In this document: positions 2,652-6,606 of the stretch, piece after piece
Numbering within the stretch: position 1 is the first letter of the stretch
How the letters are laid out: the number at the start of each line of letters is the position of its first letter
Source of the DNA: Serratia liquefaciens ATCC 27592
Lineage (GTDB): Bacteria; Pseudomonadota; Gammaproteobacteria; Enterobacterales; Enterobacteriaceae
Length of the DNA stretch: 64,000 nucleotides
NCBI RefSeq assembly: GCF_000422085.1
Contig: NC_021741.1
Coordinates: 3,472,001-3,536,000, forward strand
Direction: 5' to 3'
Translations under genes and position numbers: made by a program
The notes under the pieces: model-generated
The model's database searches: none
The model's input: the letters and a program-made list of their open reading frames with translations, nothing else
Told to the model about the DNA's origin: nothing

Positions 2652-4058
2652 TCACTTTGTCGATAGGTGCGGTTTACGCCACCGCGTAGCCAGATACCAC
2701 AGCAAATCACACAGCAGAAACATCAGTAAACTGACGCCCATCACCGGCAAACAAATGCCCAGCAGCAGCGTCAGGCAGACTATCAGCAACAGCGGCCCTT
2801 TTGGCGTTTTGCGCAGCAACATAAAGGGGGAACGGGCTGGTTTACGTACCACTCGCGTTGGCCGACCTCGCCACCACATCAGGTACCCCATCACCACCAT
2901 CGCCACCAGCCCGGCGGCAAAAACCACCAGCACCAGCTCATTGACCAGGCCAAACAGGACGCCCATATGCAAATCGATTCCCCAGCGCGTTAATTTTGCC
3001 GCGAGCGGGTATTGTTCAAAACTGACGCGATCGGTAATGGCCAGGGTTACGGGATCGATAGCAACAGCATCAACCTGCGTCGGCCAACGGCGATCGATCT
3101 CCATGACCGTCCAGGCCTGCCCCGCCATCGCCGGCTGCTTGATTTCAACCCTGGCGGCGTCGATACCGGCCTGCCGTGCACCGGCCAGGGCCCTGTCATA
3201 CATGGCGCCATCCTGAGGCGGTTCCGCCCTGACCATCATATGCTCATGGTGTTCCGCATGATCGCCGGCAGGTACAGCGTCCTGCCCGTTAATCGCCGTC
3301 GACAGCGAGGGTGTTGACCAGCCGAATTGCTGGCGCAGCACGCTGATATTCTCCCCAGCCCACTGTGACCAGGTCAGCCCGGTGGCAGAAAAGAACAGCA
3401 GGCCGACCAGCAGCAGTACGCCACTTTTTTCATGTAACCTGCGTAAGCCACCACGCTGACGCGTTACCTTCTTACGCCTGCGCGCCCCCCAGAGGATCAG
3501 CCCCCCCAGCGCGGCAATCCATAGCCAGGAGGCTGCCAGTTCGCTGTAATTTCGCCCTACATCCCCCAGCAACAGACTGCGGTGAAATTGGTCCAGCCAG
3601 GTGCGCAACGGCAATACGCCGCTGGTACCATAAACCGTCATTACGCCGTGCGTCTGCGCCGTAACCGGATCAACAAACACCGCCAAACGTTCCGAAGCCT
3701 GAAGCCCTGCGACGTTAAACAGAACCCGGGTATTCTCGCCCTCTGCCGGAGAAGGACGCACTGCCGACAGAGAGGCTTTTGATGGCGCTATCGCCTGAGC
3801 GGCCATAATCTGCTGTTTTAACGGCAGTACCGGACCGGTACTGTCGTTATACAACTGCGGGGCATAAAGCCTTGATTCAATTTGCGGCGTCAAGGCATAA
3901 AATATGCCACTCAATGCCGCAATAAGTAAAAACGGCCCAACAAAAAAACCAATATAAAAATGAACCCGCATAGCCAACGGAATAAACCAACTGCGAGTAG
4001 TCACCTGCAGGTTAATATTCTGCGCAGCAGCAGGCAACGCAATATTGCGTTCAGACAT
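2652..4058 (-). CDS. PepSY-associated transmembrane protein (PiuB-like)
   Basis: 468 residues. It has the PepSY_TM architecture: a first membrane helix around residues 33-55 (HFYIGFFVGPFLLIAALSGIFY), a periplasmic PepSY-like domain, paired helices near 175-190 and 213-230, a second periplasmic domain and further helices near 370-400 and 420-455. The family includes iron-regulated PiuB-like proteins of siderophore systems, proposed to reduce iron or carry electrons across the inner membrane. A His/Met-rich stretch, DHAEHHEHMM, near residues 270-280 suggests a metal site in the second periplasmic domain. It is divergent from the DUF2946 gene at 4227, whose family is linked to copper. I therefore infer metal handling, copper or iron, without being able to say which. 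Confidence 0.8.
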   Translation of the reverse strand: MSERNIALPAAAQNINLQVTTRSWFIPLAMRVHFYIGFFVGPFLLIAALSGIFYALTPQIESRLYAPQLYNDSTGPVLPLKQQIMAAQAIAPSKASLSAVRPSPAEGENTRVLFNVAGLQASERLAVFVDPVTAQTHGVMTVYGTSGVLPLRTWLDQFHRSLLLGDVGRNYSELAASWLWIAALGGLILWGARRRKKVTRQRGGLRRLHEKSGVLLLVGLLFFSATGLTWSQWAGENISVLRQQFGWSTPSLSTAINGQDAVPAGDHAEHHEHMMVRAEPPQDGAMYDRALAGARQAGIDAARVEIKQPAMAGQAWTVMEIDRRWPTQVDAVAIDPVTLAITDRVSFEQYPLAAKLTRWGIDLHMGVLFGLVNELVLVVFAAGLVAMVVMGYLMWWRGRPTRVVRKPARSPFMLLRKTPKGPLLLIVCLTLLLGICLPVMGVSLLMFLLCDLLWYLATRWRKPHLSTK

Positions 4059-4226
4059 GATAAGTCATCCGTGGTCAAATGGAATTACCCGGAATCTACC
4101 CGAATTAAATTCATTTAACAAACAGATTTCTTCTCTGTTTAGCTTAATTCTCATCAATGTTACAATAGTGGAACAACTGCTGACATTGTCATTCCTTTAC
4201 GCTTTAACCCTGCAAGGACGCTCCTG

Positions 4227-4667
4227 GTGAAACTGTCAATTCAACATATGCGCACGCTGGCCTGGCTGGGCCTGTTCGCTATGTTGATGATATTCATCGC
4301 GCCATCAATCTCCACCCATCTTGCAAAAAATAGCATGGATAACAGCGAGATGATTGGCATGCCCATGAATGCGGAGCATGCCGAACACAGGACAATGATG
4401 AGCCAGAACCTCACCGATAGCCCGCCGGCAGGGCACAACATGGCGGACATGAGCACCGGCGACTGTTTTAACTTCTGCGGCTACTGCAGCCTGTTTCATC
4501 ATAGCCCGCCACTGGTCATTTTGCCGTCAGCACTCCCGGCGATCAATATTCAACGCGCGCCATCCCTTATTCAAAATCTTTTTCACATTATTATCCCCTC
4601 AGTCTTTCCGCCTTATCAAACCCGGGCACCACCTTTTACCCTCATTAATTTTATTAAATATATCTAA
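4227..4667 (+). CDS. DUF2946-family Met/His-rich exported protein
   Basis: 146 residues from GTG at 4227, supported by AAGGA about 8 bases upstream; an ATG eight codons in is the alternative. It begins with one hydrophobic segment (about residues 10-28), then a Met/His-rich stretch (MIGMPMNAEHAEHRTMM and GHNMADM) and the conserved CGYCSLFHHSPPL motif of DUF2946. DUF2946 proteins are small periplasmic or membrane-anchored proteins often found beside copper transport and TonB-receptor genes. The clustered Met, His and paired Cys residues would suit Cu(I). It is divergent from a PepSY membrane protein, with about 170 bp between them. The copper role is inferred from composition and neighbours. 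Confidence 0.75.
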   Translation: MKLSIQHMRTLAWLGLFAMLMIFIAPSISTHLAKNSMDNSEMIGMPMNAEHAEHRTMMSQNLTDSPPAGHNMADMSTGDCFNFCGYCSLFHHSPPLVILPSALPAINIQRAPSLIQNLFHIIIPSVFPPYQTRAPPFTLINFIKYI

Positions 4668-4727: not shown

Positions 4728-5624
4728 TTAATCTTTACTTTGCTGCTGTTTTAACTGCGTCTCAAAAGACCGTTGAGACTGCTGCACATATTGCTGTAGC
4801 CCCAGCCGATCGACAAAAGCATCCCGATCGCCAGCCTGAAGTCGCGCCATTTTATTTTCCAGATCGAAGCGCGTTCCCTTATTGGCGATAAAAATATCCG
4901 CGTGCTGCTGGGCCAAAAGCCTAAAGCTGCTGCGGATGTCCTGCACCAGACTCGGGTAGTTTTTGTTATCGACCAGATAGTAGTCCGGGGTTGCCAAACT
5001 GTCGGCATAGACCAGCCGATAGGTTTTGCCGCTCTGCCGCAGCGTGGTCGTCCATGAAGTGGCGCCAGGCAAATGCCCCGGCGTCATTAACGCCGTAAAT
5101 TTCAGCCCGCCCAAAGTAACGCTATCCCCTTGCCCGACGATAATGTCGACCTTCACCGGAGGGAAACCAAGTGCATCTCCCAAGGCAAAATCCTGCTTTC
5201 CTCCCCGTGCCAACTGTTGGGCATTGGCGGCGCTGGCAACCACTTTCGCCCCGCTCCAGGCTTTCAAACGAGCGATGCCTCCAGCCTGATCGAGACGTGC
5301 GTGACTGTTAAGAATGAAGCGCAAATCCTTGATGTTGAAGCCCAATGCCTCAATATGGGATTTTATCACCGGGGCACTGGCATCTAACCCCGCATCAATA
5401 AGAATCAATCCTTCCGGCGTGCTGAACAGCACGGAAGAAAGGTTGCGTGTGCCGACATAATACACCTGAGGGAACATCTGGAATGGCGCCACCGGCTGCG
5501 CCCATTGCTCAAACAGTGAATATGGCGGCGCGCTGGACAACGGTTGCGCAGGATCGAGCTGTGCCTGAGCGTTAAAGCACAGTGAGAATGTCATAGCCAT
5601 CAGATAACCCATGTTTTTTTTCAT
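4728..5624 (-). CDS. Subclass B3 metallo-beta-lactamase, altered metal site (RQK type)
   Basis: 298 residues with a signal peptide (about residues 1-21, ending AQA), so periplasmic. The fold markers of subclass B3 are present: YYVGTRNLSSVLFSTPEG, LIDAGL and MTPGHLPGATSW. B3 enzymes bind two zinc ions through H116, H118, H196 and D120, H121, H263. Here the first motif reads NSHARLDQAGG, giving His108, Arg110, Asp112 and Gln113; His184 is kept; the last ligand is Lys249 in IANKGTRFD. So H118, H121 and H263 are Arg, Gln and Lys. This matches a group described as B3-RQK, of which SPR-1 from Serratia proteamaculans is, as I recall, a member. Beta-lactam hydrolysis is likely but is inferred. It is divergent from a LysR gene that may control it. 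Confidence 0.9.
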   Translation of the reverse strand: MKKNMGYLMAMTFSLCFNAQAQLDPAQPLSSAPPYSLFEQWAQPVAPFQMFPQVYYVGTRNLSSVLFSTPEGLILIDAGLDASAPVIKSHIEALGFNIKDLRFILNSHARLDQAGGIARLKAWSGAKVVASAANAQQLARGGKQDFALGDALGFPPVKVDIIVGQGDSVTLGGLKFTALMTPGHLPGATSWTTTLRQSGKTYRLVYADSLATPDYYLVDNKNYPSLVQDIRSSFRLLAQQHADIFIANKGTRFDLENKMARLQAGDRDAFVDRLGLQQYVQQSQRSFETQLKQQQSKD

Positions 5625-5650
5625 GTTTCAGCTCTACGGGGAAAAACAGG

Positions 5651-5689
5651 GCTGAAGTATACTCAGCCTAATATTGAAGCGTATTCAAT
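5651..5689. promoter_or_regulatory. Two inverted repeats between metallo-beta-lactamase and lysR
   Basis: A perfect repeat ATTGAA - 5 bp - TTCAAT (5673-5689) has the T-N11-A form of a LysR binding site. Sixteen bases to its left is a second, GCTGA - 7 bp - TCAGC (5651-5667). Both lie in the 79-bp gap between the divergent genes, where a LysR protein that controls itself and its neighbour would bind. Confidence 0.6.
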
Positions 5690-5703
5690 TTAAAAGGCTA
5701 TTA

Positions 5704-6606
5704 ATGAACATTCTGCAAATGGACATGAACCTGCTGAAAGTGCTCTACCTGTTGACCAGCACCGGATCCAGCCAGAAAACGGCGGATAAGCTCGGCATCA
5801 GCACTTCTGCCGTCAGTCACGCCCTGGCCCGCTTGCGTGAGGTGCTGGATGAGCCTCTGTTCCGGCGGGAAGGGCATCGCCAGGTGCCGACGCTGTTTGC
5901 CCTGTCGCTTAAAGAAACGCTAACGCCCTTGTTCTCTTCGCTGGACAGTGAATTGTTCGGCCATGTGCCGGACGCGCCACGGCATTTCACCCTGGTTGTG
6001 CCGCCGGCACTGCATCCGATCTTATTGCCGTTGCTGGCGCAGAAAAGCGCGCTAGCCAATGCCGATATCCGCTGCCAAAATTTTGAGCGACGTTCATGGC
6101 GCACTGAGCTGCTGGAAGGCGCGGTAGATATGGTGATTGCCGTTGGCGATCACCAACAGCGCACCAGCGCGCTGCGTTATGAGCTTATTGGCAGCACCCG
6201 CCTGGTGGCGGTATTCGGATCGCCGTTGCGCCAGGTATTAGGTCACAAAAACGGGCTGACATTTGGTGAACTGGCAGACTACCCGCACTATTACTGCCAT
6301 CCCTGGGCACAGGCAGAGAACGAACTTGACCGTCAGTTGGAACGCCAGGGTTTACAACGCAGGATCCAGCTCAGCTGTGCCGATTACGCGCAGTTGCCAC
6401 CGGTACTGCGCGCAGCGCCACTGATGGCAGTAGTTCCGCAACCCTGGTTCAATGCACAGCAGGACAAGCAGGGACTGTACGCCCTGCCGATCCTGGACGA
6501 TCTGGCGATTGGTTATCTGTTTTCACACTATCGCCAGGGTGAAATCGAGTGGAAAAAACGGCTGATCTCCGCTCTCCACGCGGAGTTGAAGCCTTATTAT
6601 CAATAA
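5704..6606 (+). CDS. LysR-family transcriptional regulator divergent from the B3 lactamase
   Basis: 300 residues from ATG 5704, chosen because AAAGG lies 6 bases upstream and because the longer frame would run through the palindrome at 5673-5689. The N-terminal winged helix-turn-helix is clear (residues about 5-62: LLKVLYLLTSTGSSQKTADKLGISTSAVSHALARLREVLDEPLFRR). The effector-binding domain occupies the remainder (about 90-295). It belongs to the LysR branch with a MNLLKVLxLL start, like LeuO and YbeF/CitR-type regulators, not the AmpR type by sequence. The divergent arrangement imitates ampR-ampC. Whether it senses cell-wall fragments or some other molecule cannot be read from the sequence. 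The convergent DUF1348 gene starts 6 bp past its stop. Confidence 0.88.
   Translation: MNILQMDMNLLKVLYLLTSTGSSQKTADKLGISTSAVSHALARLREVLDEPLFRREGHRQVPTLFALSLKETLTPLFSSLDSELFGHVPDAPRHFTLVVPPALHPILLPLLAQKSALANADIRCQNFERRSWRTELLEGAVDMVIAVGDHQQRTSALRYELIGSTRLVAVFGSPLRQVLGHKNGLTFGELADYPHYYCHPWAQAENELDRQLERQGLQRRIQLSCADYAQLPPVLRAAPLMAVVPQPWFNAQQDKQGLYALPILDDLAIGYLFSHYRQGEIEWKKRLISALHAELKPYYQ

What the first reader, a model, noticed from the sequence alone, without database searches (positions are those of the whole stretch)
4728..5624. B3 metallo-beta-lactamase with three zinc-binding histidines replaced (R, Q, K)
The protein keeps the B3 fold motifs, signal peptide, His108, Asp112 and His184, but positions equal to H118, H121 and H263 are Arg110, Gln113 and Lys249. 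Such a site cannot bind two zinc ions in the usual way. A B3-RQK group with this pattern has been described, including a Serratia protein (SPR-1), so the class may be known, but its natural function, metal and regulation are little understood.
Basis: partly seen in the sequence, partly recalled or inferred. Interest (0 to 1): 0.75.

Follow-up and report, generated by a model that had tools for sequence, protein, structure and literature searches.

The report
Atypical B3 metallo-beta-lactamase with LysR partner
A Serratia-type chromosome carries a known, unusual relative of zinc beta-lactamases whose metal-binding histidines are partly replaced; in the enterobacterial relatives checked it sits back to back with its own regulator gene, which hints at a job other than everyday antibiotic resistance.

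Summary
The minus-strand ORF 5624-4728 (298 aa) aligns as H108/R110/H184 + D112/Q113/K249 where canonical B3 enzymes have HHH/DHH. The class is known: the protein passes NCBIfam's SPR-family model (637 bits, cutoff 550), and B3-RQK proteins have been made, assayed and crystallised; CSR-1 crystals hold no metal and an N-terminal loop covers the site (PMC7381538).

What I add: in 25 of 25 loci (10 genomes of the window's genus, 15 of six other Enterobacteriaceae genera) the gene lies back to back with one LysR subfamily, unlike AmpR and CARR-type neighbours. In the genus both genes occur in the same 10 of 30 genomes. Neighbourhoods differ between genera. In 23 of 25 loci the spacer keeps a half-site at fixed distance from TATACT. 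Both genes are under purifying selection. So this looks like a maintained, regulated, exported module; substrate and inducer are unknown, a resistance role is unlikely. No structure could be predicted.

The parts
4728..5624 (-). B3-RQK (SPR family) MBL-fold protein, 298 aa, signal peptide read by eye; H108 R110 D112 Q113 H184 K249
   Evidence: ORF and translation; NCBIfam NF041137 637.3 bits against cutoff 550, NF000405 HARLDQ 491.8 against 350, NF033105 subclass B3 320.6 against 240; columns read
5704..6606 (+). divergently transcribed LysR-type regulator, 300 aa (one search lists a longer frame from TTG at 5674; the ATG at 5704 fits most relatives)
   Evidence: Pfam HTH_1 and LysR_substrate; divergent neighbour in 25 of 25 RQK loci; nearest solved chains 5ae4, 2uyf and 1uth, LysR-type, E 1e-16 to 1e-15
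5625..5703 (.). 79-base divergent spacer
5674..5688 (.). dyad TTGAA-N5-TTCAA (contains T-N11-A), possible LysR binding site
   Evidence: a dyad at this place passes the 10-of-15 criterion in 13 of 25 loci; its ATTG[AC] half on the minus strand is kept in 23 of 25 at fixed distance from TATACT
5656..5661 (-). TATACT, possible -10 element of the MBL gene; no sigma-70 pair recognised
   Evidence: consensus scan of 5500-5800 found 0 promoter-like pairs, 0.5 expected in shuffles, so the absence says little
5650..5668 (-). terminator-like hairpin over the TATACT element, before the MBL start
   Evidence: 1 found, 0.2 expected; a hairpin of 6 or more pairs over TATACT in 6 of 25 loci, followed by a T run in 3 of 25, all in the window's genus

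Best explanation
The gene encodes an exported B3-RQK MBL-fold protein whose two zinc sites are altered by R110, Q113 and K249, and it is controlled by a back-to-back, dedicated LysR regulator acting at the conserved spacer. Shown here: sequence, ligand columns, one-group tree, purifying selection, pairing with one LysR subfamily, conserved spacer elements. Shown by others on relatives: poor metal binding, site covered by the N-terminal loop, reduced beta-lactam hydrolysis, no resistance from the mature protein. Inferred: periplasmic location; LysR as the regulator and perhaps activator; and that the natural task is a regulated, low-flux reaction or binding event on a small carboxylate-bearing compound (perhaps a lactam or ester), with metal recruited only with substrate, rather than defence against clinical beta-lactams.
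For: SPR family by curated cutoff. Ligand columns in 52 of 52. One group in the tree. Nine positions between 40 and 289 fixed in 52 RQK rows and never seen in the 12 other rows: R110, Q113, N134, A147, L152, L185, N222, A247, K249. Mature N-terminus 21-37: mean identity 0.70 in RQK against 0.645 for residues 49-298; in the 12 others 0.272 with 52% gaps, fitting a kept lid. Median dN/dS 0.078 (0.04-0.13) for the MBL in 21 of 45 within-genus pairs and 0.064 (0.02-0.17) for LysR in 22 of 45; the rest were dropped as too close or saturated. Divergent LysR of this subfamily in 25 of 25 loci and in 0 of 12 loci outside the group, at the flanks held. Same 10 of 30 genomes of the genus. In eight loci of six other genera only these two genes are shared with the window's locus (with for L085). 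Spacer pattern in 23 of 25 loci, 7 of 9 representatives, against 0.005 expected per 9 resampled spacers. Published biochemistry: PMC7381538 (whole main text), PMC10318434 (passages).
Against: No expression, binding or substrate data exist here. The activator role is a guess: the published LysR beside a canonical B3 gene, CARR, represses (PMC12434095, passages). The spacer pattern was chosen after seeing the alignment; 2 of 25 loci lack it and 12 of 25 show no dyad at that place by the criterion used. In the window's own spacer TATACT lies inside a terminator-like hairpin, so it may not be a promoter element there. By invariant columns of A1 the lid is slightly less constrained than the body (7 of 28 against 81 of 250), by 90% columns about equal (12 of 28 against 99 of 250). 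Distance correlation of the two proteins (0.97 over 25 loci) would also arise from shared ancestry. One locus (L055) has a LysR whose first part lies in another frame. The Acinetobacter-type branch could not be checked for the LysR.
Confidence: 0.58

Rival explanations
1. It is a working intrinsic beta-lactamase that gives low-level resistance, inducible like AmpC through AmpR.
For: B3 family score above cutoff; beta-lactamase activity of SPR-1 and of CSR-1 forms in vitro (PMC7381538); divergent LysR genes act on, or are proposed for, AmpC, VarG and CAR-2 (passages).
Against: Mature B3-RQK proteins gave no resistance in E. coli disc tests (PMC7381538). The Salmonella homologue was present in all experimental isolates of one survey, so the authors could not link it to reduced carbapenem susceptibility (PMC8099073, passage). 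No family named AmpR is among the 16 NCBIfam matches of the LysR (whether that library holds an AmpR model was not checked). NCBI names one covering model HARLDQ_not_B3.
Confidence: 0.17
2. The protein is a non-enzymatic, metal-free binding protein or sensor on an MBL fold, and the LysR answers to the same ligand.
For: No metal in CSR-1 crystals (PMC7381538); Arg and Lys fixed at former ligand positions; nine co-fixed positions; closest solved chains of the regulator are LysR-type regulatory proteins.
Against: H108, D112 and H184 are kept in 52 of 52, odd for a site that never holds metal; weak hydrolysis has been measured in relatives.
Confidence: 0.2
3. A decaying pseudo-enzyme of no function.
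For: Lost metal ligands; patchy distribution (10 of 30 genomes of the genus).
Against: dN/dS medians of 0.08 and 0.06; residues invariant across genera; both genes found together in different neighbourhoods.
Confidence: 0.03

Closest known systems
SPR-1 (Serratia proteamaculans), B3-RQK
   Same: SPR-family model passed at 637 bits; named S. proteamaculans and S. quinivorans proteins 85-87% identical; same HRH/DQK ligands
   Different: Only in ordinary sequence divergence; SPR-1 itself was not retrieved under that name
CSR-1 (Cronobacter sakazakii); PDB 6dn4 is probably this protein (the entry name says only Beta-lactamase; the link is my inference)
   Same: C. sakazakii protein P0040 62-63% identical, same ligands and N-terminal segment; 6dn4 E 9e-117
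   Different: blaCSR model cutoff not reached (423 of 600 bits)
Salmonella STM3737 / SER-1 type
   Same: about 62% identical, same ligands, divergent LysR. That SER-1 is STM3737 is my inference
   Different: lies between yicC and yicG instead of beside DUF1348
CARR/CAR-2, VarR/VarG and AmpR/AmpC pairs
   Same: beta-lactamase gene back to back with a LysR gene (passages)
   Different: another LysR subfamily: best E 0.004 against 5 LysR genes lying near MBL genes outside the RQK group, CAR-1-like loci among them

Membership tests
B3-RQK (SPR family) | HRH/DQK ligand pattern | tested here: met
   columns read as H R D Q H K
B3-RQK (SPR family) | curated SPR model score | tested here: met
   NF041137 637.3 bits against cutoff 550
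B3-RQK (SPR family) | N-terminal segment that covers the site in CSR-1 | tested here: inconclusive
   segment conserved in sequence; no structure of this protein was predicted or solved
B3-RQK (SPR family) | weak metal binding, clavulanate sensitivity | not testable with these tools
   known for relatives only (PMC7381538)
canonical subclass B3 metallo-beta-lactamase | HHH/DHH (or Q/E at 116) dizinc ligands | tested here: not met
   R110, Q113, K249 replace three His
canonical subclass B3 metallo-beta-lactamase | B3 family sequence score | tested here: met
   NF033105 320.6 bits against cutoff 240
AmpR-type regulated beta-lactamase system | AmpR-family regulator | tested here: not met
   24% over 152 aa, E 0.004, to one LysR annotated ampR_2 beside a CAU-type gene; no family named AmpR among the 16 NCBIfam hits; a classical AmpR was not compared
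AmpR-type regulated beta-lactamase system | induction by beta-lactams or muropeptides | not testable with these tools
   needs expression measurements

The most novel reading that the evidence does not exclude
The RQK branch has turned a dizinc hydrolase into a metal-free pocket in which the cations of Arg110 and Lys249 stand in for the two zinc ions. With its dedicated LysR partner it forms a small-molecule processing or sensing module, carried as a two-gene cassette between enterobacterial chromosomes, with a substrate unrelated to clinical beta-lactams.
Probability: 0.18. Interest if true: 0.75.

Novelty: new member of a known kind. Interest (0 to 1): 0.4.

Why it matters
The enzyme class is in print, and automatic pipelines report blaSPR as a resistance gene (for example AMRFinderPlus in PMC11895432, passage). 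A dedicated regulator unlike AmpR, found with the enzyme in different chromosomal neighbourhoods of several genera, gives a direct handle on the unanswered question of what these proteins are for: find the inducer of the LysR and one has a candidate substrate. It also argues against counting the gene as a resistance determinant by presence alone.

Tried and rejected
AlphaFold2 prediction of the protein on alignment A1 was asked for; each time the machine was busy, so no structure and no fold comparison were made. The 2013 SPR-1 paper is not held and is cited only through later papers. One order-level search (295 genomes, E limit 1e-80) found only the window's own genome, and one class-level search (369 genomes) gave five other hits, which carry canonical ligands. 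The genome-contig scan gave 4 loci, each titled Serratia; their contig lengths equal those of four contigs also met under G handles, so they were not counted again. Mobile carriage found no support: 19 of 72,556 plasmid records match at E 1e-10, each under 60% identity; of 7 phage-collection matches the three at 60% or more are two Salmonella genome contigs and one unverified 3.1 kb contig from a Salmonella phage sample. A terminator or attenuator common to the group was considered after and dropped: the hairpin with T run is seen in 3 of 25 loci. Literature: only searches had LysR as a term; searched for names of the family or its genes; the whole main text of PMC7381538 has no mention of LysR that I saw, and PMC10318434 has 0 occurrences. 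No report of the pairing was seen; this covers open-licence PMC papers only, most of them as listings. A crude motif regex picked wrong stretches in several rows and was replaced by the alignment. The ORF filter lost the LysR of L085; one search shows it in the same locus (as L043).

Full report
What is there. The minus strand of 4728-5624 encodes a 298-residue protein with an ATG start and a signal-peptide-like N-terminus (the signal peptide is read by eye). It passes the curated NCBIfam cutoffs for the SPR family (637.3 against 550 bits), for HARLDQ motif MBL-fold proteins (491.8 against 350) and for subclass B3 in general (320.6 against 240). The short name of the second model, HARLDQ_not_B3, suggests that its curators hesitate to call the group B3. 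The closest solved chain is 6dn4 (E 9e-117); L1 chains follow at E near 1e-54.

The ligand columns. In an alignment of 52 RQK sequences with 12 MBL relatives outside the group, positions 108, 110, 112, 113, 184 and 249 read H R D Q H K in 52 of 52. They read H H D H H H in 11 of the 12 others and E H D H H H in 1. The 52 are the query, 24 loci and 27 of the 28 rows of A1 (28 of the 121 proteins, chosen by eye for spread), so near copies are included. Of the 12 others only L036 carries a B3 annotation; the rest were taken by similarity. HARLDQ is present in all 121 proteins then held, the query plus the 120 listed of the 414 hits. Nine positions between 40 and 289 are fixed in the 52 and never seen in the 12: R110, Q113, N134, A147, L152, L185, N222, A247 and K249. 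A tree of 20 RQK and 12 other rows puts RQK on one side of a branch (99/98; 100% of 200 bootstrap trees), with a warning about long branches among the others.

What is already known. Pedroso et al. 2020 (PMC7381538, whole main text read; supplement not seen) named the B3-RQK group, found 47 such proteins, inferred a single origin, and showed for CSR-1 that crystals hold no metal and that the N-terminal loop lies over the site. Mature proteins gave no resistance in E. coli; only engineered forms did, and clavulanate inhibits those. A 2023 review (PMC10318434, passages) adds that SPR-1 may assemble a dizinc centre when substrate is present and that no alternative substrate is known.

What I add: the partner gene. 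Upstream and divergent lies a LysR gene (5704-6606 +). In the window's genus the MBL is found in 10 of 30 genomes and the LysR, at E 1e-30 or better, in the same 10 of 30; 4 of the 20 negatives are small genomes of 1.5 to 3.6 Mb. In a draw of 392 family genomes, 16 including the window's own carry the RQK gene. The 15 others, from six genera, and the 10 loci of the window's genus have a homologous LysR divergent from it, 25 of 25, 48-58% identical to the window's LysR outside the genus. None of the 12 loci outside the RQK group has a homologue at E 1e-5, but 10 of these 12 were held with about 1.5 kb or less on each side and 2 with 4 kb. Five LysR genes that do lie in those loci match it at best at E 0.004. 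One of those loci, L008, encodes an MBL with the N-terminal segment that PMC12434095 (passage) quotes for CAR-1, so CARR-like regulators are probably among them. A protein search for the LysR returns 42 clusters at E 1e-30; those with names come from Serratia, Cronobacter, Salmonella, Pseudescherichia, Photobacterium and an uncultured Moellerella; most clusters have no name.

The pair behaves as a unit. In the window's genus it sits beside a DUF1348 gene. Of the 16 genomes of the genus that have DUF1348 but no pair, 3 (L061, L062, L069) show DUF2946 and DUF1348 matches about 175 bases apart with nothing of the pair between them; in the other 13 DUF2946 was not found within the flank held. In eight loci of six other genera only the MBL and LysR are shared with the window's locus (in L085 the ORF filter lost the LysR, which one search shows under L043). 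The same order is annotated in a named Salmonella Infantis contig whose MBL note reads STM3737 and whose spacer has the same sequence as L045-L048 and L051. In E. coli 0 of 5,426 genomes has a place covering 80% of that stretch; 5,374 match part of it, and three of the four listed records hold dinD there. No close plasmid copy was found among 72,556 records.

The spacer. It is 79 bases in the window (5625-5703). On the MBL strand an ATTG[AC] half-site is followed after 22 or 23 bases by TATACT in 23 of 25 loci (7 of 9 representatives), against 0.005 expected per 9 first-order resampled spacers. I chose the pattern after viewing the alignment, so the contrast is descriptive. A dyad at that place, by a 10-of-15 criterion, is seen in 13 of 25 loci: 8 of 10 in the window's genus and 5 of 5 Salmonella-type; 12 of 25 do not show it. 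The consensus scan found no sigma-70 pair in 5500-5800 (0.5 expected by chance) and one terminator-like hairpin at 5668-5650 that contains TATACT (0.2 expected). A hairpin of 6 or more pairs over TATACT is found in 6 of 25 loci and a T run after it in 3 of 25, so TATACT is conserved more widely than the hairpin; in the window's own gene an attenuator remains possible. A LysR dimer over the -35 region of a promoter lacking a good -35 is the usual picture of an activated promoter (established knowledge of LysR regulators), but repression is documented for CARR and for VarR (PMC12434095 and PMC5595328, passages).

Selection. Median dN/dS within the genus is 0.078 for the MBL (21 of 45 pairs; range 0.04-0.13) and 0.064 for the LysR (22 of 45; range 0.02-0.17); pairs with dS of 0.05 or less, or 1.5 or more, were dropped. 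Protein distances of the two genes correlate at 0.97 over 25 loci and 0.94 over 11 representatives (0 of 5000 permutations as high); common descent alone can give this. The mature N-terminus 21-37, the segment that should form the lid, has mean identity 0.70 in RQK proteins against 0.645 for the body, and 0.272 with 52% gaps in the other 12; by invariant columns of A1 it is slightly below the body (7 of 28 for 21-48 against 81 of 250). I read lid and altered site as one adaptation; this is inference.

How it most likely works. An exported, lid-covered, weakly metal-binding MBL-fold protein is made under control of its own LysR. The nearest solved relatives of the LysR are 5ae4, 2uyf and 1uth, which I recall as DntR, a regulator answering to small aromatic acids. 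That suggests a small organic acid rather than cell-wall fragments as inducer, a weak inference at these E-values. Catalysis on a natural compound with metal recruited along with substrate is my first choice. A metal-free binding site in which Arg and Lys replace the two zinc charges is the bolder reading, and the evidence does not exclude it.

Verdict. The finding is correct and the class is known. The protein is an ordinary member of it. The regulatory pairing is what I did not find in print (with LysR as a term; on family and gene names; open-licence papers only), and it belongs to a known kind of arrangement.

Noticed in passing
L055 (G879 contig C52): The LysR beside the RQK gene has its first part in another frame than the rest, so it may be broken there or hold a sequencing error, while the MBL frame is open.
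   Followed up: partly
L056 and L057 (also L090, L091): The two loci of one genus with the lowest MBL identity (57-58%) lack the conserved spacer pattern and share a further gene downstream of the MBL (cluster c26), whose product looks like an outer-membrane protein by eye.
   Followed up: no
window 2652-4667: A PepSY_TM protein and a DUF2946 protein flank the module on the far side; 5 of 10 loci of the genus have them within the 1.5 kb flank held.
   Followed up: partly
P0090, P0099, P0103, P0117 and related proteins: A separate RQK branch, one member named Acinetobacter gerneri, reads ANKAD at Lys263 and SLFTGGY where most other rows of A1 read SLATPxY; its gene neighbourhood could not be fetched.
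   Followed up: no
window 5650-5668, minus strand: A terminator-like hairpin with a T run lies between the divergent spacer's dyad and the MBL start; seen with T run in 3 of 25 loci only.
   Followed up: partly
PMC8874588 (passages): A HARLDQ protein is listed for Vitreoscilla massiliensis, which I recall as a betaproteobacterium, outside the gammaproteobacterial hosts seen here.
   Followed up: no
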